Shown here in pieces: positions 34,660 to 46,694 of a stretch of DNA of 64,000 nt (position 1 is the first letter of the stretch; each line of letters starts with the position of its first letter). Origin of the DNA: Thermoplasmata archaeon (lineage in GTDB: Archaea; Thermoplasmatota; Thermoplasmata; Thermoplasmatales; Thermoplasmataceae); the NCBI GenBank assembly GCA_021797555.1, contig JAJZZM010000020.1, positions 124,001 through 188,000 of the forward strand. Reading direction: 5' to 3'. The notes beneath the pieces were generated by a model. The model did no database searches. It saw only the letters and a program-made list of their open reading frames with translations, and was not told where the DNA came from. The translations under genes and the position numbers were made by a program.

Positions 34660-35526
34660 TTATAAAAATGGATATAATATTATAACAACAAGTAAAATAA
34701 AAAGATACATGTTAGATAAGCCAAATGCGCTCCTGAAGTATTTTTTATTATAGTCATGCAGGAGGGGTTTAAGTACATAATACAGTAATATAATATCCAT
34801 TATTACAGCTATCGGTATGTACACAAAGCCTAACTTTATCTGTGGTACCAGTAGTGGAATCATAGAATAAAATATAAGAATTACAGTATTAACAATAATC
34901 CAGAATTCAGTTTTTTTAATTCCCACTACTGCAGGTAACATCGGTACGTTGCTTTTTTTATAATCATCAACGTTATTTACAGAAAGATTCCAGAAGTGTG
35001 TAGGTGTCCACATAAACACAAGAAATGCTACAAATAACGATGTCAATGATACCGAGTTGGTTAATGCTGCCCATCCTGCCAATGCGGGAAAACCTCCTGC
35101 TATACCACCTATAACAATGTTTAATGATGTCCTTCTTTTTAATATAATTGTGTATAAAAGTACATAACTTAAAAACCCTGCGAATATGAAAACCGCAGTT
35201 AATAAATTAATAAATGTATAACTTATAGCAAAAGATAAAATTATCATTACTGTTGATATTAAAAATATTTTATTTCTTGTTTCTGGATTTAATGTACTTG
35301 ACCTTGATTTTGTTCTTTTCATTTTTATATCTATATCCATATCATAAATATTATTAAATATACTTGCTGACATTGATGCCAGAGTTCCGCTTAATAGTAA
35401 AAGGAATAAAATTAAAGGATATTTTATACTTCCAGGTACAAGCATAAAGCCTGCAACGGCAACTAAATCAATAAGAATCGTAATTTCCATTTTTGTAATT
35501 TTCATGAAATTTGAAAGTTTTGACAT
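34660..35526 (-). CDS. ctaB: Protoheme IX farnesyltransferase (heme O synthase)
   Basis: This UbiA-family integral membrane prenyltransferase (288 residues, about eight to nine helices) farnesylates heme B to heme O. The first Asp-rich motif is NIYDMDIDIKMKRTKSR near residue 60-76, then AGWAALTNSV, and the heme-synthase segment WTPTHFWNLSVNNVDDYKKS with MLPAVVGIKKTE. It is downstream of coxB on the same strand (49 nt gap), and the heme A synthase gene lies at 45918, so both heme-tailoring enzymes flank the oxidase. Confidence 0.93.
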   Translation of the reverse strand: MSKLSNFMKITKMEITILIDLVAVAGFMLVPGSIKYPLILFLLLLSGTLASMSASIFNNIYDMDIDIKMKRTKSRSSTLNPETRNKIFLISTVMIILSFAISYTFINLLTAVFIFAGFLSYVLLYTIILKRRTSLNIVIGGIAGGFPALAGWAALTNSVSLTSLFVAFLVFMWTPTHFWNLSVNNVDDYKKSNVPMLPAVVGIKKTEFWIIVNTVILIFYSMIPLLVPQIKLGFVYIPIAVIMDIILLYYVLKPLLHDYNKKYFRSAFGLSNMYLFILLVVIILYPFL

Positions 35527-35575: not shown

Positions 35576-36409
35576 TTAATCTCCAGCTGATGGTGGTGCT
35601 GCTGGTATACCATTATCATAATCTGTTGGACCATAGTTATATGTTACACCGTGATAAACAAATGTTTCATTCATTTCTCCGGGTTTCTGCTGATTTTCCC
35701 ATTTTGTGAAGTTCTGCGGTGTTAAAACAAATGCCTGACCTCTCATATGTGCATGTCCTAATCCACAGAGTTCTACACATTCGAAGTAGAATAAGCCTGT
35801 TTGTGTTATATTTGTCCATATATAGTTGTAATGCCCAGGGAATGCATCCACCTTTGTTACATTAATTAGATAGAACGAATGCATTACGTCAACACTAGTA
35901 ACATTAAACTGTATCGGCGTATCGTCTGGTAGTACTGCATAGTGCCTTGTTGATGACCCGTTTGGATATATGAATATCCACTGCCACTGATAACCGACTA
36001 CATCAATGTCCATATAATGATGGGCATCTGTGGGTGCACTTGGTGCTGCTCCGGCAACCCTTATCCCATATGCTGGTGGTAAATCATAAACCAGTAATGA
36101 CAACAATATAAGAACAACGAATAGAACGAACAATTTGAATATAGTTTTATTGCCACGTTCTATTTCTTCTATTCTGCCTGGTCTCATATCCTCTTTTGGA
36201 TTGTAATGTTCGTTTATGAAATTATCTGATTCTTTTTTATGATAACTCCTTATGAATACAAATACATACCAGAAGGCAAAACCTCCACCAATAACTATTC
36301 CTGGCAGTATGTATGCCAGAAATATTGATGTTATTTCAGCACCGGTTATGGAACCTGTAGGTATTAAATGATATACATCAGGAATTATATTATATATATT
36401 TTCTAACAT
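35576..36409 (-). CDS. Heme-copper oxidase subunit II with CuA site
   Basis: This 277-residue protein has two N-terminal membrane helices (about 25-50 and 90-110) and an exterior cupredoxin domain. The CuA ligands are present: His in VDVMHSFYL and the cluster CVELCGLGHAHM (two Cys, Glu, His, Met). WQWIFIYPNG is the Trp-rich electron entry patch of subunit II. A CuA site means it takes electrons from a soluble or anchored carrier such as sulfocyanin rather than from quinol. It lies 11 nt downstream of the sulfocyanin gene. The C-terminus is Pro/Ala/Gly-rich. Confidence 0.93.
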   Translation of the reverse strand: MLENIYNIIPDVYHLIPTGSITGAEITSIFLAYILPGIVIGGGFAFWYVFVFIRSYHKKESDNFINEHYNPKEDMRPGRIEEIERGNKTIFKLFVLFVVLILLSLLVYDLPPAYGIRVAGAAPSAPTDAHHYMDIDVVGYQWQWIFIYPNGSSTRHYAVLPDDTPIQFNVTSVDVMHSFYLINVTKVDAFPGHYNYIWTNITQTGLFYFECVELCGLGHAHMRGQAFVLTPQNFTKWENQQKPGEMNETFVYHGVTYNYGPTDYDNGIPAAPPSAGD

Positions 36410-36420
36410 TTTTTATCACC

Positions 36421-37035
36421 TTATTTTATTGTGTAATATGGAACAGTTACACTGCTGCTCACTATCACGAATGCGTACATGCCTGCTTCAGCGTGTGTAG
36501 TTAAACCACATACGACCCAATAGTTACCGGGTATTGTATTGTTCCACCATATTGCCCTGTAATGTGCGGTATTTCCATACCATATTGGGAGTATTGTGCC
36601 CGTACTGACTATGACCTTCTCAACATGAACACTGGTATGTGCCCATATAGGTCCACGTGCCCACTGATATGAATATGGCAATTCAAATTTCAGTGTGTGT
36701 GGCTTTACCTCATAATTTGTCATATTTGCATGTATATATGCGTGTGCCGGTAAATATATTGTCATTGCACCGTAGGATGTACCGTTAAAGTTAAATGGAT
36801 ATGCATCTGGATGACCATTTCCCTGACCCCATGCAGCAAGTGAAAGATTTACCACCTCATGGGTTCCAGTTGCATTTGTTACATTATAATATGGTATATC
36901 CCTATGTGCTACTGCACCCTGATCTGACATTATGGTATTCATGGGTTCGTAGGATGCAACTGTTATACCTATTGCCGCAATCAGTATGACCGCCACTATC
37001 AATACGGCAAATGCAGCTTTTGTTAATGTCTTCAA
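36421..37035 (-). CDS. Sulfocyanin-like membrane-anchored blue copper protein
   Basis: This is a cupredoxin with one N-terminal membrane anchor (about residues 5-28) and an exterior domain. Copper ligands: His in VKPHTLKFEL, and Cys, His, Met in VVCGLTTHAEAGM, the C-x4-H-x4-M pattern of sulfocyanin. The best start is TTG 37035, which overlaps the stop of the small upstream gene (TTGA) and is preceded by AGGTGG at five nt; the frame continues upstream without a good start. It is a likely electron donor to CuA of subunit II. In acidophilic archaea sulfocyanin has been linked to iron oxidation and general respiration. Confidence 0.87.
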   Translation of the reverse strand: MKTLTKAAFAVLIVAVILIAAIGITVASYEPMNTIMSDQGAVAHRDIPYYNVTNATGTHEVVNLSLAAWGQGNGHPDAYPFNFNGTSYGAMTIYLPAHAYIHANMTNYEVKPHTLKFELPYSYQWARGPIWAHTSVHVEKVIVSTGTILPIWYGNTAHYRAIWWNNTIPGNYWVVCGLTTHAEAGMYAFVIVSSSVTVPYYTIK

Positions 37036-37262
37036 GAGAACCACCTGCCCATAAATACATTCATGAATAGCCATAAGGTAAACCATATAGCTATTACAAT
37101 TACGGCAAGTGCATATGGATTTTTCCATATAGTGACTTCATTGTATTCAAAGTCGTCATCACCAAGTGTCATCTCAACATCTGCATAGTCATATGATTTT
37201 TTTACTTCGTTTTTATTTACATTTTTATTTATATTTTCAGCTCTTTCATTATTTTCAACCAT
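37032..37262 (-). CDS. Small single-helix membrane protein of the oxidase operon
   Basis: A 76-residue protein with a hydrophilic, Asn/Lys/Glu-rich N-terminal part (residues 1-48, acidic patch LGDDDFEY) and one C-terminal transmembrane helix (about 50-70) ending in GRWFS. I recognise no family. Its position between the CoxI-III fusion gene (10 nt upstream) and sulfocyanin (4-nt overlap) suggests an accessory or assembly subunit of the terminal oxidase. GTGATAAAA precedes the ATG at 37262. Confidence 0.75.
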   Translation of the reverse strand: MVENNERAENINKNVNKNEVKKSYDYADVEMTLGDDDFEYNEVTIWKNPYALAVIVIAIWFTLWLFMNVFMGRWFS

Positions 37263-37272
37263 TTTTATCACC

Positions 37273-39774
37273 TCACACTACAAATGCTATTGTAGTAAAC
37301 ACACTTGTAAGGAATACAAATGCAATAAACCACATTAGTATATCTGCGCTTGTAGCAGTTCTTCCCCATAATATTCTCTTACTTTTCTTTATCTGTACCA
37401 TGTATCTTATCATTACGGCTATTACACCTACTGCAAACAATGCATCCATTAATGATATTATCCAGAACATGGATGATACTGGATTTGTACCAATGTTTGA
37501 TAGGTTCATTGCACTGTATGAATTTATTACCACAAATGATAATAACGATGTTATAAGGTATATTATTGCAAATACTGTTGCTATTAGCATATGATTGAAT
37601 GATTTGTTTCTGTTTTTATTTATTGCACCGTATAGTGAAAACCATGAGAATAAAGCCGCTATTCCTATAGTTATTATTGATACTGCTATATATACAGATG
37701 CCAGTGATGGGAAGAAGAATGTTGTTGGGTCATTCCCTTCCACATAGGGTGAAACTGCCTGTAATTTTAACCATTCTACCATTCCATAGAACGTTGCCAT
37801 CCATATCATGTCACCTGCAAGGAATATTAACATTCCAAGCCTCATGTTGTTGAAACCCTTTGTAACAGGGTCTTTTTTATATGTGGGTGGTACGTTTGGT
37901 GATTTTAATTTGTAATCATCATACATCCATCTTAAGCATCCCCATACAAATAATGCTAGTGCGAATGCAACTATTGCATAACCAAGATATGCATATAATG
38001 CCCCAAATGCGTATGGTTTATGTCCCATTAATGCTATAACAGCACCAAAGAATGCCAGTGTAACTCCTCCACCTATAAGCAATGGTGAATATGATAGCTC
38101 CACTTTTGATGGTTTTATTGGATGATTCTGATCCATTAATAAATCTCTATGGTCTTCTCCACCAACATATGGCTCATAGTCAAAGTTATAGTATTTTGGA
38201 GGGTTTGTTGTGAACCATACAAATCCAGCCGTTGCCTTGTATGGATTTGTTTCTGTTAATGGTTTATGTTTCTTTAATGAATAACCGAAGTTTGCAAACA
38301 TTATAAGGAATGATAAACCGAATATAAATGCACCCGCTGTTGAGATCTCATTAAATATTGTATAACCAAATCCGGACTGGTATGTATAAACCCTTCTGGG
38401 TAAATCATACAGGAAGAACATTGGGAAGTATAATGTGTTTACACCTATGTATGCAATTGCCCAGTGGATTCTTCCAAGTGTTTCATTATACATTTTCCCC
38501 GTAAATTTTGGGAAGTAATAGTATAAATTACCCATTAATCCCATTACGGCAACTCCTACCATAAAATAATGGAAGTGCGCCACTACATAATAATCTCCAT
38601 GAACTATTGTATCTATAGCTAATGATGACTGTGTTACCCCTGTTACACCCCCTATCATAAATGATGTTGAGGCTGCAAGCGCAAATAATATTGGTGTCTG
38701 GAATTTATGCTTTGCACCCAGTAACGTTGCTATTAGACCTACTATAAGCATTGATGTGGGTATAGATATTGTCTCTGTAAATATACTAGTTGCCATTAAC
38801 CATGCAAATACTATGCCCGTCATAAATGTATGATGCAAGAACACCATTACACTATCTACGGATATTGCACCCATTGCAGCTATCATCCATTTTTTCAGGT
38901 AAGGTGCCTTATGACCTAGATTCGATAAATAATCGAACATTGCGCCTGTTCCAGGCAATAGCAATAGATAAACCTCGGGGTGACCGAAATACCAGAACAG
39001 GTTTTCCCACATTAACGCACCGCCATATGTTGATATATATGCTGAAAAACCAAATACATTTGATATAACTAGTATAAAGAACATTGCAGTTATTTCGGGG
39101 AAAACAAACCAGGATATCATTGCAACCCATAATACTGCCCATGCAAATAATGGTAGATTCATTAATCTGAAACCTCTTGCCCTTGCTTTGAATACCGTTG
39201 CTATGACCTCTGTAGAAGCTATTATAGTACCAAGTCCTCTAACCACCACAGCGGCAGCAGCAGTATCTGCTCCAAGATATGGTGTGAATTTAAATGAGGA
39301 TAATGGCTCATATACTGTCCATCCTGTATCCAAATTGCCACCAGGTAAGAAGAAACCAATCCATAATAATATTCCGCTGAATAGAAATAACCAGTAACCC
39401 AATGCATTTATTCTTGGATAGATCATATCTCTTGACCCTATTGCCAGCGGTATTAAATATATACCAAAACCAAAACCCAACGGTCCAAGGAACCATATTA
39501 ACATTGTTAATCCATGTATTGTCACAAGTTGATTGTATTGTAGTGCATCAAGGAATCTTCCTGAGAATAAACTGAAATTAACAAGGTCATACCTTGGTAT
39601 CGCTAGCTGTACTCTCATTAGTAATGCAAGAACTCCACCTCCAATGAAAAAAGTCAGTGACGTTAGTATGTACAATAAACCTACCTGTTTGTGATTGGTT
39701 GTAAAGATCCAACCTTTCACGGAATTGTAAATCTTATTATTCTCTTCGTATACTTTATTATCTTTACTTTCCAT
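37273..39774 (-). CDS. Fused heme-copper oxidase subunits I and III
   Basis: The first ~560 residues are subunit I of an A-type (SoxM-like) oxidase: the low-spin heme His in VTIHGLTMLIW, GHPEVYLLLLPG with CuB His and the cross-linked Tyr, FLHHTFM with two CuB His, and VAHFHYFMVG with the high-spin and low-spin heme ligands. After a linker (about 560-620) the last ~220 residues have five or more helices with the layout of subunit III. TTATATC lies about 26 nt before ATG 39774, fitting a leaderless start there rather than the ATG 57 nt upstream, which follows a second TATA-like box too closely. Terminal step: O2 to water with proton pumping. Confidence 0.93.
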   Translation of the reverse strand: MESKDNKVYEENNKIYNSVKGWIFTTNHKQVGLLYILTSLTFFIGGGVLALLMRVQLAIPRYDLVNFSLFSGRFLDALQYNQLVTIHGLTMLIWFLGPLGFGFGIYLIPLAIGSRDMIYPRINALGYWLFLFSGILLWIGFFLPGGNLDTGWTVYEPLSSFKFTPYLGADTAAAAVVVRGLGTIIASTEVIATVFKARARGFRLMNLPLFAWAVLWVAMISWFVFPEITAMFFILVISNVFGFSAYISTYGGALMWENLFWYFGHPEVYLLLLPGTGAMFDYLSNLGHKAPYLKKWMIAAMGAISVDSVMVFLHHTFMTGIVFAWLMATSIFTETISIPTSMLIVGLIATLLGAKHKFQTPILFALAASTSFMIGGVTGVTQSSLAIDTIVHGDYYVVAHFHYFMVGVAVMGLMGNLYYYFPKFTGKMYNETLGRIHWAIAYIGVNTLYFPMFFLYDLPRRVYTYQSGFGYTIFNEISTAGAFIFGLSFLIMFANFGYSLKKHKPLTETNPYKATAGFVWFTTNPPKYYNFDYEPYVGGEDHRDLLMDQNHPIKPSKVELSYSPLLIGGGVTLAFFGAVIALMGHKPYAFGALYAYLGYAIVAFALALFVWGCLRWMYDDYKLKSPNVPPTYKKDPVTKGFNNMRLGMLIFLAGDMIWMATFYGMVEWLKLQAVSPYVEGNDPTTFFFPSLASVYIAVSIITIGIAALFSWFSLYGAINKNRNKSFNHMLIATVFAIIYLITSLLSFVVINSYSAMNLSNIGTNPVSSMFWIISLMDALFAVGVIAVMIRYMVQIKKSKRILWGRTATSADILMWFIAFVFLTSVFTTIAFVV

Positions 39775-39971
39775 GGATATAATATTTTTATTCTGGATAT
39801 AAGTGTAATTATAGAATATTTTCAAATCCATTATTATTTTATACGTATAATTATTTTAAGGTCATAATGATTCATTTAAATTAAATTTAGATTTATTTTT
39901 TATAATGCTAAATAACAATATAATGATATAATACATATAAAATTTTTATCTAAAAATACTATCAATAAAAA

Positions 39972-42068: not shown

Positions 42069-43607
42069 TTATTCATTAAATGTTTTTGGATTTCTCTTTT
42101 TGTTTTTTATTACATATGGTTCTTCAGGTATTGAATATTGATACATTGTATCTATTGTACTTAGCCACATAAATGGCAATGCAACCCCCCATAGTATAGC
42201 GGAAAAGTATATCTGTTGTGTTACCCCGTATAATGGATATAATGTAGTTACGTTTATAAGTGATATGTAGAATATTATAAGTGCTGTCATACTGAACATC
42301 ATTGAGTTGAACTCAACGTATGCCCTTTTAAGTTGATATAAATTAATATAAACAGTATAGGTTATCAATCCAGATACTAATGAGAATATGTTCATAAGTA
42401 AATAAAATGTATAATATGTATAGGCATAATAGGCTATTGATGGAATAAACCATATAAACATTAACAGTGAGGCTACTATAACCAGAGTTATCTTTATTTT
42501 ATTATTAATAATAGTTGGCTTTATGCCTATTTTTGTCAGTACGTAAACAAGGAATATTCCTGCAACAAACATTAAAATGTTAATGCCGTAGAAAAATAGC
42601 AATGATGTAAATTCTAGATGGAAAGCAATGCCTATAGTTTCTGCCACGGGCGTAATAATTATAAAGAATATTGCTAATAAGGGAAATACATTACTGTTTC
42701 TAATATCCTTTATATTGGATACAATTTTAAGCCTTGACCTTTTAGTAAGGAAAACAGTAAGCATAAAATTACTGAATAAAAGCAACGCTATGCTTTCCGA
42801 TAATAGAGCGGTGCTTACAGTAGTCGCAATTACAGCGGCCACTGTTGGCAAGGTTGCAGTTAAACCCTCACACTGGCAGCTCAGTACAGAAATACCACCA
42901 CTTATTGTCGGGCTTATTAAGTCCTTTGCATTGTTTCCTTTTCTATTCTTTTCTTTACGAATTTCTCCTGTACCGCCCTTTACTATGCCGAAGATTAAAA
43001 AATAGTTCTCAGTTAATAATGCTGCGAGTATTATATAAAGTATTATTGACTGTATCCCAATAGTAAAATTTAGGTAATTTACTCTCATTATAATACCATA
43101 ATAGAAAAAGAAGGGGACCTTAGATGATGGGAAATCAGCATAAATTGAGTCTACAACAATTTTTGTCGGCTCTATAGGGACAGTTATTGCAAGAAATCTC
43201 GATATAAACAGCATTATAAATAGTATAAGTATAAATGCAGCACCACGATAGAAAAGTTTTCTATCTTTCCTGAAATATGTTATATCTATTATATCTGTGT
43301 AAAAAGCGAGGGTAAACAGAACTAAAACTTCTATTAATGGATAAACTATGTATGTAAATAAGAGTATAATAAAGGTTACAAGCCCTATAAATAGAAAATA
43401 TGCATATATTCTATTTATTATAGAATTTTTTCTGAAAAAAACAAGAAATGGAAATATAACATATGGTAAAAGTATGAATAGGAATTGATATGATGCTGGA
43501 TATAATCTAGCTGAATATACAACGAAAACCCCGGTAACGTAAGAGTAAAAAAATAGATATATTGTGAATATAGATACTAATATACTTTCTATAGCTTCTC
43601 TTTTCAT
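42069..43607 (-). CDS. Polytopic membrane protein with a Cys-x-Cys motif (unknown)
   Basis: This 512-residue protein has about thirteen to fourteen transmembrane helices with few charged residues. Near the middle, after a basic cytoplasmic loop (EIRKEKNRKGNNAKD), lies the hydrophobic segment ISGGISVLSCQCEGLTATLP with a Cys-x-Cys pair, unusual in a membrane helix. I know no family with certainty. It is divergent from the polyferredoxin gene with 90 nt between, which suggests joint control and a joint complex. A metal-binding, quinone or electron-transfer subunit is possible. The first codon MKREAIES lies close to the promoter region and could be leaderless. Confidence 0.6.
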   Translation of the reverse strand: MKREAIESILVSIFTIYLFFYSYVTGVFVVYSARLYPASYQFLFILLPYVIFPFLVFFRKNSIINRIYAYFLFIGLVTFIILLFTYIVYPLIEVLVLFTLAFYTDIIDITYFRKDRKLFYRGAAFILILFIMLFISRFLAITVPIEPTKIVVDSIYADFPSSKVPFFFYYGIIMRVNYLNFTIGIQSIILYIILAALLTENYFLIFGIVKGGTGEIRKEKNRKGNNAKDLISPTISGGISVLSCQCEGLTATLPTVAAVIATTVSTALLSESIALLLFSNFMLTVFLTKRSRLKIVSNIKDIRNSNVFPLLAIFFIIITPVAETIGIAFHLEFTSLLFFYGINILMFVAGIFLVYVLTKIGIKPTIINNKIKITLVIVASLLMFIWFIPSIAYYAYTYYTFYLLMNIFSLVSGLITYTVYINLYQLKRAYVEFNSMMFSMTALIIFYISLINVTTLYPLYGVTQQIYFSAILWGVALPFMWLSTIDTMYQYSIPEEPYVIKNKKRNPKTFNE

Positions 43608-43697
43608 GATGTTAGATATTTATAACTATGAATAAGGTTAATTATAGAATAATGTCTACAAACAAATAGTAATATAATAATATAATTAGATAAACAG

Positions 43698-45905
43698 ATG
43701 GGTAATCTTACATTAATTTTAGGATTAATTACGATAATTATAATGGTTACATACATAATACTTGTATTTTCATATGTGCTTAGACATAAATATGATATAT
43801 CATTTGTAAGAGTAGCCGTAATAGGCATATTTACAGCTATGATGGCAAGTATGCTTGATGCATTATTATTTTATATTACAACAGAAAAAAATTTCCTTGA
43901 TACAACCCTTTCATTTTCATTTGGAATGATTTTAATGACGCAGCCAATTGTTGCAACGTTTGTTGGAGTAATGCATGGTGGATTATATAGAAAAGGTATT
44001 ACAAAGGCAAATTCAATAGCTTTTACCGGACTTATAGTATGGAATGAAGTATCTATGGGATTATTTCTATATTATCTTTTCCATCCAACTATAATAAATT
44101 TTAATTACTATCATGCATTTTATTCACTTGATTTTGTATACGCCTTAAGCAATGGAATAAATACATTATATTTTCTTATACCAATGAGTGTTGAGATGAT
44201 TGCACTGTTCTTTGTTTACAAACCGAAGGGTATGCATAAGTATGCGGCAATATCAATATTTACCATGGATTTATTTTCACCTACAATACTCGGAAATGAT
44301 AAATTTGTTTTTATAGGAGGTGTCGGGGAAACAGCCGTTATGATAATATTTATGATAATTTTCTTTGAGTTTATAGCATCGCATAAAATGGTATTACCAA
44401 AAGAGGATGCATATCATATAAAAATGATTTTTATAGATTATGGCATGATGGCAACTGGAACTTTTCTTGGTACAATAATGTTAAAACCATTTGGACTTGT
44501 ATGGATATTCTATGCCATGGCTATAATATTTGGTATGTGGTACTATTTTCAGAGCATGTTTTCTATAACAATAAATACCACCACAGAAACAACCAAGAAT
44601 AATATTATCATAAAAAGAAAAAAAACTGTGTCAAAACCAGCTTATCTAATTTTCTTTGTACTTGTAATATCCTTTGTGTCTGAGCTTTTGATGGCAGGTT
44701 CAATGGATTTCGCAACCTATGTTTATCTACCATTTTATAGGGCTATAGATACAGTACCTTATTACAATAATGTGTCAGTTGCCTCTTTTTATGCAAAGGA
44801 CGTTTTAAAGGAATTTGTTTCACCATTTGTCCCTGCCACGGTAGGTGTTAAAAATTTTCTTGTCCTGTATGATATGGTTGGCGGCGTTTATAAATTTACA
44901 CCGATATCAACATTTATAGAAGTATTATATATTATCGGTTATATTACTGATTCTCCAACATTTTTAATTATAATGGGTATAGAGATGGGTGCCTTGGTAA
45001 TATCACAGATGAGAAAATTAAAGGATAAGGGCAAAAAGATTAATTTAGCATTTGCATTGACAGCCTACGTTTTATATACTACAGTAGGTCCGAACTTCCT
45101 TGACCCTTTATGGTATAATAAATTGCCCTTATGGGCAAATACAGGTTCACAGGCTGCATTGTATCCCTACCTTGTGATACCCTTGCTTGGGTCATATGCA
45201 TTGTATGCATTACTTGCATTATTATTTGGCAGGAGATCATATTGCTCAACTTTATGCCCTTCTGCAGTAATGTATGGAGGCACATTAGGGCAATCAATGA
45301 TAAAGTACAATTATGATACAAAAATAAGTAAAAAAATGCGAGGAAGTAAATTTACAGATTCAATAATGTTTATAGCAACTGGTAGCTGGCTATGGGCCAT
45401 ATTAGCATCATTATTCTCATATTATTATGCAAGTACAGGCAATTTATCATTCAGCATTTATGGCATAGACCCATCAGTATTTTATTCATATTTTATATGG
45501 AATTTATTATGGTATGTCTTCTTCTTTTCAATACCATTTATTGGTATGAGCCCGTGCCGTAAATATGGATGGTGTTCTACGGGCACTTTAGTGGGATTTT
45601 TCAGTGTTTTAGGATTCTTCAAACTTAAGGTAAAGGATAAAAATGTATGCAAAACGTGTAAAACAAAGGACTGCGCAAAATCATGCGAGGTTGGATTATC
45701 CACAATGCCAGGGTCATTTATAAAGAATGGTTCTTTCAAGAGCATTAAATGTGTTGGTTCAGGAGATTGTATAAGAGCCTGCCCATATGATAACATATAT
45801 TTTTATGATGTGAGGAATTATCTGGGTGAAAAACTCATGCATAAAAAAATAAATAAAAATGAGGAAATAACAAAATTTAAAGAAAATACAGAGATAAGAA
45901 AATAA
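43698..45905 (+). CDS. Membrane polyferredoxin of the NapH/CcoG type with large N-terminal membrane domain
   Basis: This 735-residue protein has an unusual N-terminal half of about ten membrane helices, then a NapH/CcoG-like part: YCSTLCPS (Cys 516 and 520), CRKYGWC (620, 626), and a cytoplasmic domain with C-x2-C-x4-C-x3-C and CVGSGDCIRACP, the last being a [4Fe-4S] ferredoxin site. It may pass electrons across the membrane or between membrane quinone and soluble carriers. Membrane polyferredoxins of the fox iron-oxidation clusters of Sulfolobales (FoxG) are the closest concept I know; equivalence is inference. ctaA follows with 12 nt, so both are one operon. Confidence 0.75.
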   Translation: MGNLTLILGLITIIIMVTYIILVFSYVLRHKYDISFVRVAVIGIFTAMMASMLDALLFYITTEKNFLDTTLSFSFGMILMTQPIVATFVGVMHGGLYRKGITKANSIAFTGLIVWNEVSMGLFLYYLFHPTIINFNYYHAFYSLDFVYALSNGINTLYFLIPMSVEMIALFFVYKPKGMHKYAAISIFTMDLFSPTILGNDKFVFIGGVGETAVMIIFMIIFFEFIASHKMVLPKEDAYHIKMIFIDYGMMATGTFLGTIMLKPFGLVWIFYAMAIIFGMWYYFQSMFSITINTTTETTKNNIIIKRKKTVSKPAYLIFFVLVISFVSELLMAGSMDFATYVYLPFYRAIDTVPYYNNVSVASFYAKDVLKEFVSPFVPATVGVKNFLVLYDMVGGVYKFTPISTFIEVLYIIGYITDSPTFLIIMGIEMGALVISQMRKLKDKGKKINLAFALTAYVLYTTVGPNFLDPLWYNKLPLWANTGSQAALYPYLVIPLLGSYALYALLALLFGRRSYCSTLCPSAVMYGGTLGQSMIKYNYDTKISKKMRGSKFTDSIMFIATGSWLWAILASLFSYYYASTGNLSFSIYGIDPSVFYSYFIWNLLWYVFFFSIPFIGMSPCRKYGWCSTGTLVGFFSVLGFFKLKVKDKNVCKTCKTKDCAKSCEVGLSTMPGSFIKNGSFKSIKCVGSGDCIRACPYDNIYFYDVRNYLGEKLMHKKINKNEEITKFKENTEIRK

Positions 45906-45917
45906 TTGGTGAATGAA

Positions 45918-46694
45918 ATGAACGTAATATTATATTATTATTTTATATTCCAGGTAATTCTTGCATTTGGAATAGTCATAGTTGGTGGTACTGTTGAGGG
46001 TTATGGCTATGGTTTATCCTTAGGTACAAACTGGCCGTATACAAAGGATATGCCATTAAAGGCAAAGGCAGGGGACCCTGAAGTATGGCACAGAATACTT
46101 GCAACACTACTTGGAATTGATGCAGTTATAATGGTTGTATTAATACACGGGGCACTTGAAATTACAGGGCTTATATTAATTATACTCACGGCTTTGCTTG
46201 GCATGGCAACATTGTATACCCTTGCTGGCAAGGCCCCATCTGTTGTACAGGGATTGCATGATGTGCTTGCGTATTCCACTGCAATTACATATTTATTAGT
46301 AGTTACCGGATCATATCCTAACGAAATATCGTTAATAATTCATAATATACCGTTGCTATTCTTTTTTATAGTAATTTACATGGGGGGCATGACTACAGGA
46401 GAGAGAGGGTATCAGAAATCAATAGGATATTTTAAATTTCCAAAAACGAAGCCACAGTGGATCTGGACAATACATGGTATAAGTGTGATAATATTTTTAT
46501 TCGCTTTAATATTATTCTTTTACAGATATAATATAGCTTTAATAATAATAGCATTCCAGATAATAGTGGGTATAATAGTGTTTATATCGGTTAACAAATC
46601 CGCATCAAAACCAGGATTTATAATACCAATGCATCAATTTTTTACAATATTAATAGTTGTATCAATAATACTCCGGCTAAGTATATTTAAATAA
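45918..46694 (+). CDS. ctaA: Heme A synthase
   Basis: This CtaA/COX15 family membrane protein (258 residues, eight helices in two four-helix halves) oxidises heme O to heme A. Four conserved His positions are in VWHRILATLL, GLHDVLAYST, TIHGISVII and MHQFFTIL. The IVGGTVEGYGYGLSLGTNWP loop corresponds to the GG(L)TRLTxSGLS region of the family. The ATG at 45918 is preceded by GGTGAATGAA; the frame opens 4 codons upstream at TTG. It is downstream of the polyferredoxin gene in the same operon. With ctaB it gives heme A for the oxidase. Confidence 0.85.
   Translation: MNVILYYYFIFQVILAFGIVIVGGTVEGYGYGLSLGTNWPYTKDMPLKAKAGDPEVWHRILATLLGIDAVIMVVLIHGALEITGLILIILTALLGMATLYTLAGKAPSVVQGLHDVLAYSTAITYLLVVTGSYPNEISLIIHNIPLLFFFIVIYMGGMTTGERGYQKSIGYFKFPKTKPQWIWTIHGISVIIFLFALILFFYRYNIALIIIAFQIIVGIIVFISVNKSASKPGFIIPMHQFFTILIVVSIILRLSIFK

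What the first reader, a model, noticed from the sequence alone, without database searches (positions are those of the whole stretch)
42069..45905. Divergent 512-residue membrane protein and membrane polyferredoxin as a possible redox module
A thirteen- to fourteen-helix protein with a rare Cys-x-Cys pair in a hydrophobic segment is divergently paired with a 735-residue polyferredoxin that has a large, unassigned N-terminal membrane domain. They lie between the oxidase cluster and heme A synthase. This resembles the idea of fox-type iron-oxidation clusters with a membrane ferredoxin, but the partner is unknown to me. It is the best candidate for a new respiratory complex here.
Basis: partly seen in the sequence, partly recalled or inferred. 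Interest (0 to 1): 0.6.

Follow-up and report, generated by a model that had tools for sequence, protein, structure and literature searches.

The report
Archaeal respiratory copper-handling membrane pair, putative
Two neighbouring, unassigned membrane proteins of acid-loving archaea turn out to be a conserved accessory pair of copper-based respiratory operons, and their invariant methionine, glutamate and cysteine residues suggest that they reduce and deliver copper in organisms where the usual copper-insertion proteins were not found.

Summary
The 512-aa protein has 14 predicted helices and an invariant SCQCE motif (32/32 sequences) in the outer half of helix 7. It is divergent from a 735-aa membrane polyferredoxin beside the aa3/sulfocyanin oxidase cluster. 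Neither protein has a family or PDB-fold assignment, apart from weak NapH/ferredoxin similarity in the polyferredoxin C-terminus. Across 250 genomes of the class, 46 of the 47 with the 512-aa protein also have the polyferredoxin, and polyferredoxin tracks COX1 (98/106). The 512-aa gene sits inside coxII-coxI-cupredoxin-ctaB or CuA-like/Rieske/cytochrome b operons, with dedicated paralogue clades. Two results were not in the finding. (1) The unassigned N-terminal domain is methionine-lined: 10 of 19 conserved positions are Met and 4 Glu, with MxxxM motifs, a pattern absent from nine control families. (2) In other families the polyferredoxin's neighbour is instead an unrelated polytopic protein with an invariant vicinal Cys-Cys. 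Cox11, Sco and Caa3_CtaG were not found. I read the pair as a copper(I) reduction/handling and insertion module (works like CcoG/CcoA plus Cox11, not homologous), probability about 0.45. A respiratory electron-transfer complex remains the main rival. No biochemistry exists; the Sulfolobales fox/cbs comparison could not be made.

The parts
42069..43607 (-). 512-aa, 14-TM membrane protein, new family (A1)
   Evidence: no Pfam/NCBIfam/PDB match
42867..42881 (-). codons of the invariant S243-C244-Q245-C246-E247 motif, outer half of TM7
   Evidence: C, Q, C, E invariant in 32/32; side by positive-inside
43608..43697 (.). 90-bp divergent intergenic region between the two genes
43698..45905 (+). 735-aa membrane polyferredoxin (PF, family A2)
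   Evidence: NapH-like C-terminus
43698..44732 (+). N-terminal Met/Glu-lined membrane domain (residues 1-345); also exists as a stand-alone ~300-aa paralogue elsewhere
   Evidence: 10/19 conserved positions Met, 4 Glu, p=4e-9; same residues in 32 distant PFs and 10 stand-alone paralogues
43839..43853 (+). M48-M49-xx-M52 (MxxxM)
44184..44198 (+). M163-xx-E166-M167 (MxxxM, MxxEM)
44973..44987 (+). M426-xx-E429-M430 (MxxxM, MxxEM)
45243..45257 (+). C516-x3-C520(P), cytoplasmic membrane edge, one half of a putative membrane-proximal Fe-S site
   Evidence: invariant; side
45555..45575 (+). C620-x5-C626, second half of the putative membrane-proximal Fe-S site
   Evidence: invariant; side
45648..45686 (+). 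C651-x2-C654-x4-C659-x3-C663 ferredoxin motif
   Evidence: invariant; Fer4_7 E=5.5e-5
45750..45785 (+). C685-x5-C691-x3-C695-P, three-Cys second cluster motif (SdhB [3Fe-4S]-type spacing)
   Evidence: invariant; cluster type inferred
45906..46694 (+). heme A synthase-like (ctaA/COX15), co-directional with PF in Ferroplasma-like genera only
   Evidence: annotation from PMC12524180; no Pfam hit
37273..39831 (-). cytochrome oxidase subunit I/III fusion
   Evidence: COX1 match in G000 at this place
36421..37128 (-). sulfocyanin (SoxE)
   Evidence: PF06525 E=5.8e-19
35576..36409 (-). cytochrome oxidase subunit II with CuA motif
34660..35526 (-). heme O synthase (ctaB, UbiA family)

Best explanation
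The pair is an accessory module that handles copper for the copper-dependent respiratory enzymes encoded around it. The polyferredoxin takes electrons from the cytoplasm through its C-terminal dicluster domain and a membrane-edge Fe-S site. It uses them to keep copper as Cu(I) in, or to move Cu(I) through, its Met/Glu-lined N-terminal membrane domain: a cupric reductase and Cu(I) conduit in one polypeptide. The 512-aa protein binds Cu(I) (or cycles as a dithiol kept reduced by the polyferredoxin) at SCQCE in the outer half of the membrane and passes it to the CuA/CuB/blue-copper sites of the operon in which its own paralogue lies. Shown: the genes, invariant residues, topology pattern, operon association, co-occurrence, paralogue specialisation and failure to find canonical Cu-insertion factors. 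Inferred: copper as the metal, direction of electron flow, contact between the two proteins.
For: (1) Conserved positions of the PF N-domain are almost only Met and Glu (10 M, 4 E of 19; p=4e-9), unlike coxI, ctaB, cytb, ctaA and five other control families; identical in 32 PFs of other families and, for nearly all positions, in 10 stand-alone paralogues. PF has three MxxxM motifs; MxxxM/HxxxM is the copper site of the importer CcoA (PMC7558416, PMC5829832). (2) CxC invariant in all 512-aa homologues; in families f13 and f12 the PF neighbour is instead a different polytopic protein with invariant GACC or GGASCC. (3) 46 of 64 512-aa genes lie within 7.5 kb of a CoxII, blue-copper, sulfocyanin or CuA-like gene; cox-type and CuA-like/bc-type copies separate on the tree with 4 label changes against 27 in shuffles. 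(4) Thermoplasma-type genomes have no COX1 but keep the 512-aa gene and PF next to a CoxII-like protein (c10) with invariant His, Cys-x3-Cys-Gly and Met, so a probable copper-protein gene is still present. (5) Cox11 0/61, Caa3_CtaG 0/250 over cut-off, Sco-like 6/250 and none in the window's family at E<=1e-5. (6) Membrane Fe-S cupric reductases exist: CcoG (PMC7558416).
Against: No experiment. The best sequence match of the PF C-terminus is NapH/MauN (quinol-linked), not CcoG. Invariant membrane Glu residues are not typical of Cu(I) sites. 13 of 64 512-aa genes are orphans without an oxidase or bc gene nearby, and 18 of 64 lack a copper-protein gene within 7.5 kb. Families f24/f25 have COX1 with neither PF nor Sco/CtaG over the thresholds used, so the module is not obligatory for oxidase assembly. 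The CC partners of f13 show no homology to the 512-aa protein, so 'same role' is inference. Structure models gave no PDB fold match.
Confidence: 0.45

Rival explanations
1. Both are catalytic subunits of a respiratory electron-transfer complex: the polyferredoxin exchanges electrons between cytoplasmic ferredoxin and quinone (or the b/Rieske or oxidase supercomplex), with the 512-aa protein as a quinone-binding or proton-conducting membrane partner.
For: NapH-like C-terminus; SdhB-like spacing C-x5-C-x3-CP of the second cluster, a type found next to quinone in succinate dehydrogenase (own knowledge); same operons as Rieske/cytochrome b and in f12 SoxE-PF-Rieske-cytb-coxI-coxII in a row; invariant membrane polar residues in the 512-aa protein (E200-N201, E247).
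Against: The 512-aa protein has several dedicated paralogues against one or two PF genes and PF often lies far from it (27 of 64 within 7.5 kb); PF occurs without it in 60 genomes; no NrfD/PsrC, haem His or other quinone/haem signature; conserved residues are soft-metal ligands.
Confidence: 0.27
2. A transmembrane thiol-reducing relay (CcdA/DsbD-like in role): the polyferredoxin reduces the membrane dithiol (CxC or CC partner), which keeps the Cys of CuA/cupredoxin sites or other extracytoplasmic thiols reduced.
For: Every PF-bearing family examined has a CxC or CC membrane protein, next to PF or in its operon in most genomes; CuA and c10 Cys pairs lie outside the membrane; in bacteria CcdA reduces ResA and perhaps Sco for CuA (PMC9145763).
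Against: Does not explain the Met/Glu-lined domain or its stand-alone paralogues that lack any Fe-S part; CxC with an adjacent invariant Glu is more typical of metal binding than of dithiol exchange (own knowledge).
Confidence: 0.13
3. The polyferredoxin supplies electrons to heme A synthase (as mitochondrial ferredoxin does for Cox15); the 512-aa gene is a bystander oxidase-assembly factor.
For: PF and ctaA are adjacent and co-directional in the window and relatives; Cox15 uses a ferredoxin in yeast (reference listed in PMC12808453).
Against: The adjacency is confined to Ferroplasma-like genera; six PF-bearing genomes elsewhere, three of them Thermoplasma-type without COX1, gave no match to this ctaA profile (no positive control in that search, and other CtaA types could be missed).
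Confidence: 0.06
4. A metal importer/resistance pair for copper or another soft metal with no specific link to enzyme maturation.
For: Weak MerE-like similarity around the CxC (E=0.01-0.03, below cut-offs); a YHS-domain heavy-metal P-type ATPase and TRASH-domain regulator next to the 512-aa gene in L057/L062.
Against: Operonic position inside cox and b/Rieske operons and paralogue specialisation.
Confidence: 0.09

Closest known systems
CcoG (FixG/RdxA) cupric reductase of cbb3-oxidase assembly
   Same: Membrane-bound Fe-S protein of the COG0348/NapH-CcoG kind encoded with oxidase genes; proposed Cu(II) reduction.
   Different: CcoG has no ~345-aa Met-lined multi-helix domain (own knowledge); the CcoG NCBIfam model is not among the 25 best matches shown, the best is NapH/MauN at E=5e-8, far under its cut-off.
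CcoA (CalT family MFS copper importer) and CTR1
   Same: MxxxM motifs inside membrane helices as copper ligands (PMC7558416, PMC5829832; CTR1 from own knowledge).
   Different: No MFS or Ctr similarity; Met residues are spread over most helices and combined with invariant Glu; fused to a polyferredoxin.
Cox11/CtaG and Caa3_CtaG CuB-insertion factors
   Same: Oxidase-operon-encoded; Cox11 carries a CxC copper motif (own knowledge); Caa3_CtaG is a polytopic membrane protein encoded last in a cta locus (PMC9145763).
   Different: No sequence match; 14 helices; CxC is within a helix, not in a globular domain.
NapH/MauN ferredoxin-type membrane proteins
   Same: C-terminal half: CxxxCP membrane-edge motif plus dicluster ferredoxin.
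   Different: NapH models are ~255-290 aa; some Fe-S motifs differ here (C-x5-C at 620/626, three-Cys second cluster); large extra N-domain.
Sulfolobales fox cluster (FoxG) and cbsAB-soxLN
   Same: Membrane ferredoxin or unassigned polytopic protein inside iron-oxidation / cytochrome b-Rieske clusters (recalled, a lead only).
   Different: Not compared: no Sulfolobales genome could be reached.

Membership tests
CcoG cupric reductase | Above-cut-off match to the CcoG/RdxA/FixG model | tested here: not met
   CcoG model not among the 25 best of 31 NCBIfam matches shown; best is TIGR02163 napH at 32.7 bits vs cut-off 213
CcoG cupric reductase | Two tetranuclear Fe-S clusters in a membrane protein | tested here: inconclusive
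   11 invariant Cys; motifs allow one [4Fe-4S], one three-Cys cluster and a membrane-edge site; cluster content not measurable
CcoG cupric reductase | Cu(II) reductase activity | not testable with these tools
   needs protein
CcoA / MFS copper importer | MFS fold and HxxxM in helix 8 | tested here: not met
   no MFS Pfam hit, no conserved His in PF; no significant fold match
NapH/MauN | Above-cut-off match and size ~255-290 aa | tested here: not met
   32.7 bits vs 213; 735 aa
Cox11_CtaG (PF04442) | Pfam match | tested here: not met
   no match for the 512-aa protein; none in 61 genomes
Caa3_CtaG (PF09678) | Pfam match | tested here: not met
Known transporter families | Pfam/NCBIfam/PDB sequence or fold match of the 512-aa protein | tested here: not met
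   only sub-threshold MerE; no PDB sequence match; Foldseek best E=0.2
Sulfolobales FoxG / CbsB | Profile match in fox or cbs loci | not tested
   the one genome-contig scan returned no Sulfolobales
Respiratory complex subunit | Encoded in respiratory operons | tested here: met
Respiratory complex subunit | Present in the isolated complex | not testable with these tools
   no proteomics examined; the Ferroplasma complex paper (Castelle 2015) was seen only as a reference

The most novel reading that the evidence does not exclude
A previously unrecognised archaeal copper-maturation system: a single-chain polyferredoxin/Met-lined Cu(I) conduit that works with lineage-specific membrane dithiol proteins (SCQCE, GACC, GGASCC families) to metallate CuA, CuB and blue-copper centres in Thermoplasmata where Cox11, Sco and CtaG were not found.
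Probability: 0.35. Interest if true: 0.8.

Novelty: new variant of a known kind. Interest (0 to 1): 0.58.

Why it matters
How archaea load copper into respiratory oxidases appears to be open: the bacterial/mitochondrial insertion factors were not detected in the window's family and hardly in this class, and the review read here names only CopZ of Archaeoglobus fulgidus as a known archaeal Cu(II)-reducing activity (PMC7558416). This pair gives named candidate genes and candidate ligand residues in organisms that can be grown, beside the operon that carries the Ferroplasma iron-oxidation chain. If it is not copper, it is still a conserved, unassigned component of aerobic respiration across much of Thermoplasmata.

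Tried and rejected
Known transporter: no family, PDB or fold match. Homology between the 512-aa protein and the f13 CC protein: hhalign probability ~0, rejected. Sulfolobus route: a SoxF fragment from 1jm1 was used for the single genome-contig scan; only bacterial loci came back, so FoxG/CbsB remain untested. PDB search with sulfocyanin found nothing. Fold searches of both models gave no significant match; the PF model is only moderate (pLDDT 70), so it was not used for geometry. Sco matches in the window's family at E~1e-4 were rejected as probable thioredoxin-fold cross-hits (~155-aa frames, mostly under cut-off). The ctaA search in six genomes had no positive control. A search of papers for cbsB/soxN gave mostly unrelated genes.
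Full report
OBSERVATION. Both ORFs are present as described: 42069-43607 (-, 512 aa) and 43698-45905 (+, 735 aa), divergent with a 90-bp gap. Upstream on the minus strand lie coxI/III, sulfocyanin, coxII and ctaB; downstream on the plus strand a ctaA-like gene. Pfam and NCBIfam give nothing for the 512-aa protein beyond sub-threshold MerE. For the polyferredoxin they give only weak ferredoxin and NapH matches in its C-terminal half. PDB sequence searches and Foldseek searches of AlphaFold models (pLDDT 82 and 70) found no relative of the 512-aa protein and only ferredoxin-domain relatives of the polyferredoxin.

ORGANISM. The window's genome belongs to a genus whose members include a complete genome of 1,826,943 bp; other members of the family have 1,584,804, 1,564,906 and 1,938,699 bp. 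From memory these are the sizes of Ferroplasma acidiphilum, Thermoplasma volcanium, T. acidophilum and Cuniculiplasma divulgatum; names below are inferred from that. Published genome papers mention the polyferredoxin only as a ferredoxin (COG0348 FAD_0146 in F. acidiphilum, PMC5473848, identity inferred; 'Fd' in the sulfocyanin cluster figure of Acidiplasma, PMC12524180). The second paper's figure legend also lists unnamed hypothetical genes in the same cluster.

CONSERVATION. 32 aligned members of the 512-aa family (19-89% identity to the window's protein) share invariant N201, I205, C244-Q-C246-E247, G413, P478, W481. The polyferredoxin shares 11 invariant Cys: C516-x3-C520P, C620-x5-C626, C651-x2-C-x4-C-x3-C663 and C685-x5-C-x3-C695P. 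The last motif has the spacing of the SdhB [3Fe-4S] motif (own knowledge), so a [4Fe-4S]+[3Fe-4S] domain is possible. Positive-inside analysis puts all Fe-S motifs on the cytoplasmic side and SCQCE in the outer half of helix 7 of the 512-aa protein.

THE UNASSIGNED N-DOMAIN. At 90% conservation the first 345 residues of the polyferredoxin have 19 conserved positions: 10 Met, 4 Glu, 2 Phe, Pro, Gly, Tyr (binomial p for Met 4e-9). None of nine control families from the same loci (coxI, ctaB, cytb, ctaA, CAAX, coxII, c10, BCP, Rieske) shows Met enrichment. The same residues are kept in 32 long polyferredoxins of families f12/f13, and nearly all of them in 10 stand-alone ~300-aa paralogues that lack the Fe-S part. 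M48-M52, M163-M167 and M426-M430 are MxxxM motifs and lie near mid-membrane in the predicted helices. This soft-metal pattern, with no conserved His, is the main reason to think of Cu(I) rather than haem.

DISTRIBUTION. In 250 genomes of the class, the 512-aa family is found in 47, all in two families (f1, f3); strong polyferredoxin matches in 106 (f1, f3, f12, f13); COX1 over cut-off in 113. 46 of 47 genomes with the 512-aa protein have the polyferredoxin (Fisher p=2e-19); 98 of 106 with polyferredoxin have COX1 (p=9e-43; sets transcribed by hand from the listings, relatedness not corrected). The five COX1-negative genomes with both genes are the Thermoplasma group.

CONTEXT. In f1/f3 the 512-aa gene lies in c8-coxII-coxI-cupredoxin-ctaB-512-CAAX operons, often overlapping ctaB; in c10-Rieske-cytb-512; or in c10-512-polyferredoxin (Thermoplasma). 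c10 is a CoxII-like protein with invariant His, Cys-x3-Cys-Gly and Met but without the second CuA His. Of 64 distinct 512-aa genes 31 are in cox contexts, 20 in c10/bc contexts and 13 are orphans; 46 have a copper-protein gene within 7.5 kb. On the tree the contexts need 4 changes against a shuffled mean of 27; all 20 c10/bc copies fall in one supported group of 22 (100/99). In f12 the order SoxE-PF-Rieske-cytb-coxI-coxII occurs.

PARTNER SWAP. In f13 the gene next to the polyferredoxin is usually a ~430-aa polytopic protein with invariant GACC (17 aligned; present in 54 f13 genomes and one f24 genome, absent from f1/f3). In f12 a ~270-aa polytopic protein with GGASCCISLP lies next to it or a few genes away. 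Neither is detectably homologous to the 512-aa protein (for f13; f12 not compared by profile). CC/CxC in hydrophobic stretches is otherwise rare (1 of 32 polytopic clusters, a P-type ATPase). A dithiol membrane partner therefore seems a requirement of the polyferredoxin, met by different families. Several f13 loci showed no such neighbour in the stretch examined.

MECHANISM. Copper fits best: Met-lined membrane domain, dithiol partner, copper-protein operons, paralogues dedicated to different copper proteins, and failure to find Cox11 (0/61), Caa3_CtaG (0/250 over cut-off) and convincing Sco in the window's family. In bacteria CcoG, a membrane Fe-S protein, reduces Cu(II) for cbb3 assembly and CcoA imports copper through MxxxM/HxxxM (PMC7558416, PMC5829832). 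I propose that the polyferredoxin combines reductase and Cu(I) conduit and the 512-aa protein is the delivery factor. The main rival is a quinone- or ferredoxin-linked respiratory complex, supported by NapH-like sequence and the Rieske/cytb neighbourhood. A thiol relay, electron supply to CtaA and simple metal transport are less likely.

STATUS. It works like known copper-assembly systems but is a member of none tested. The relation to Sulfolobales FoxG/CbsB is open.

Noticed in passing
L083:6070-6786 and 15 others (c10 family): A CoxII-like protein with invariant His, Cys-x3-Cys-Gly and Met but no second CuA His, encoded before Rieske/cytochrome b (or before the 512-aa gene) in Thermoplasmatales; possible electron acceptor of the b-Rieske complex replacing cytochrome c1. 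Only weak COX2/cupredoxin Pfam hits.
   Followed up: partly
L053:7601-8500, L055, L058, L060, L063, L065, L069, L075, L051, L088: Stand-alone ~300-aa paralogues of the polyferredoxin N-domain, next to a second polyferredoxin type (CPVG motif); they keep the Met/Glu pattern but have no Fe-S part.
   Followed up: partly
L171:9662-11583 (T. acidophilum-size genome) and L088:2101-3971: The polyferredoxin is split into two ORFs between membrane domain and Fe-S domain (overlapping by 37 bp in L171): natural fission or frameshift.
   Followed up: no
L168:5395-6399, L170:5703-6707, L194:2648-3871: Further polytopic proteins with SSGCCSPP / STGCCSPP near f13 polyferredoxins, besides the GACC family.
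   Followed up: no
L057:4801-6861 and L062: YHS-domain heavy-metal P-type ATPase and a TRASH-domain regulator directly beside the 512-aa gene in the c10-Rieske-cytb operon.
   Followed up: partly
families f24/f25 (e.g. G108, G113): COX1-bearing Thermoplasmata with neither polyferredoxin nor Sco/Caa3_CtaG matches over the thresholds used; how they metallate the oxidase is unclear.
   Followed up: no
window 45906-46694: The ctaA/COX15-like protein has no Pfam COX15-CtaA match although its invariant residues (EVWHR, further His) resemble heme A synthase; this profile matched none of six other genomes (no positive control).
   Followed up: partly
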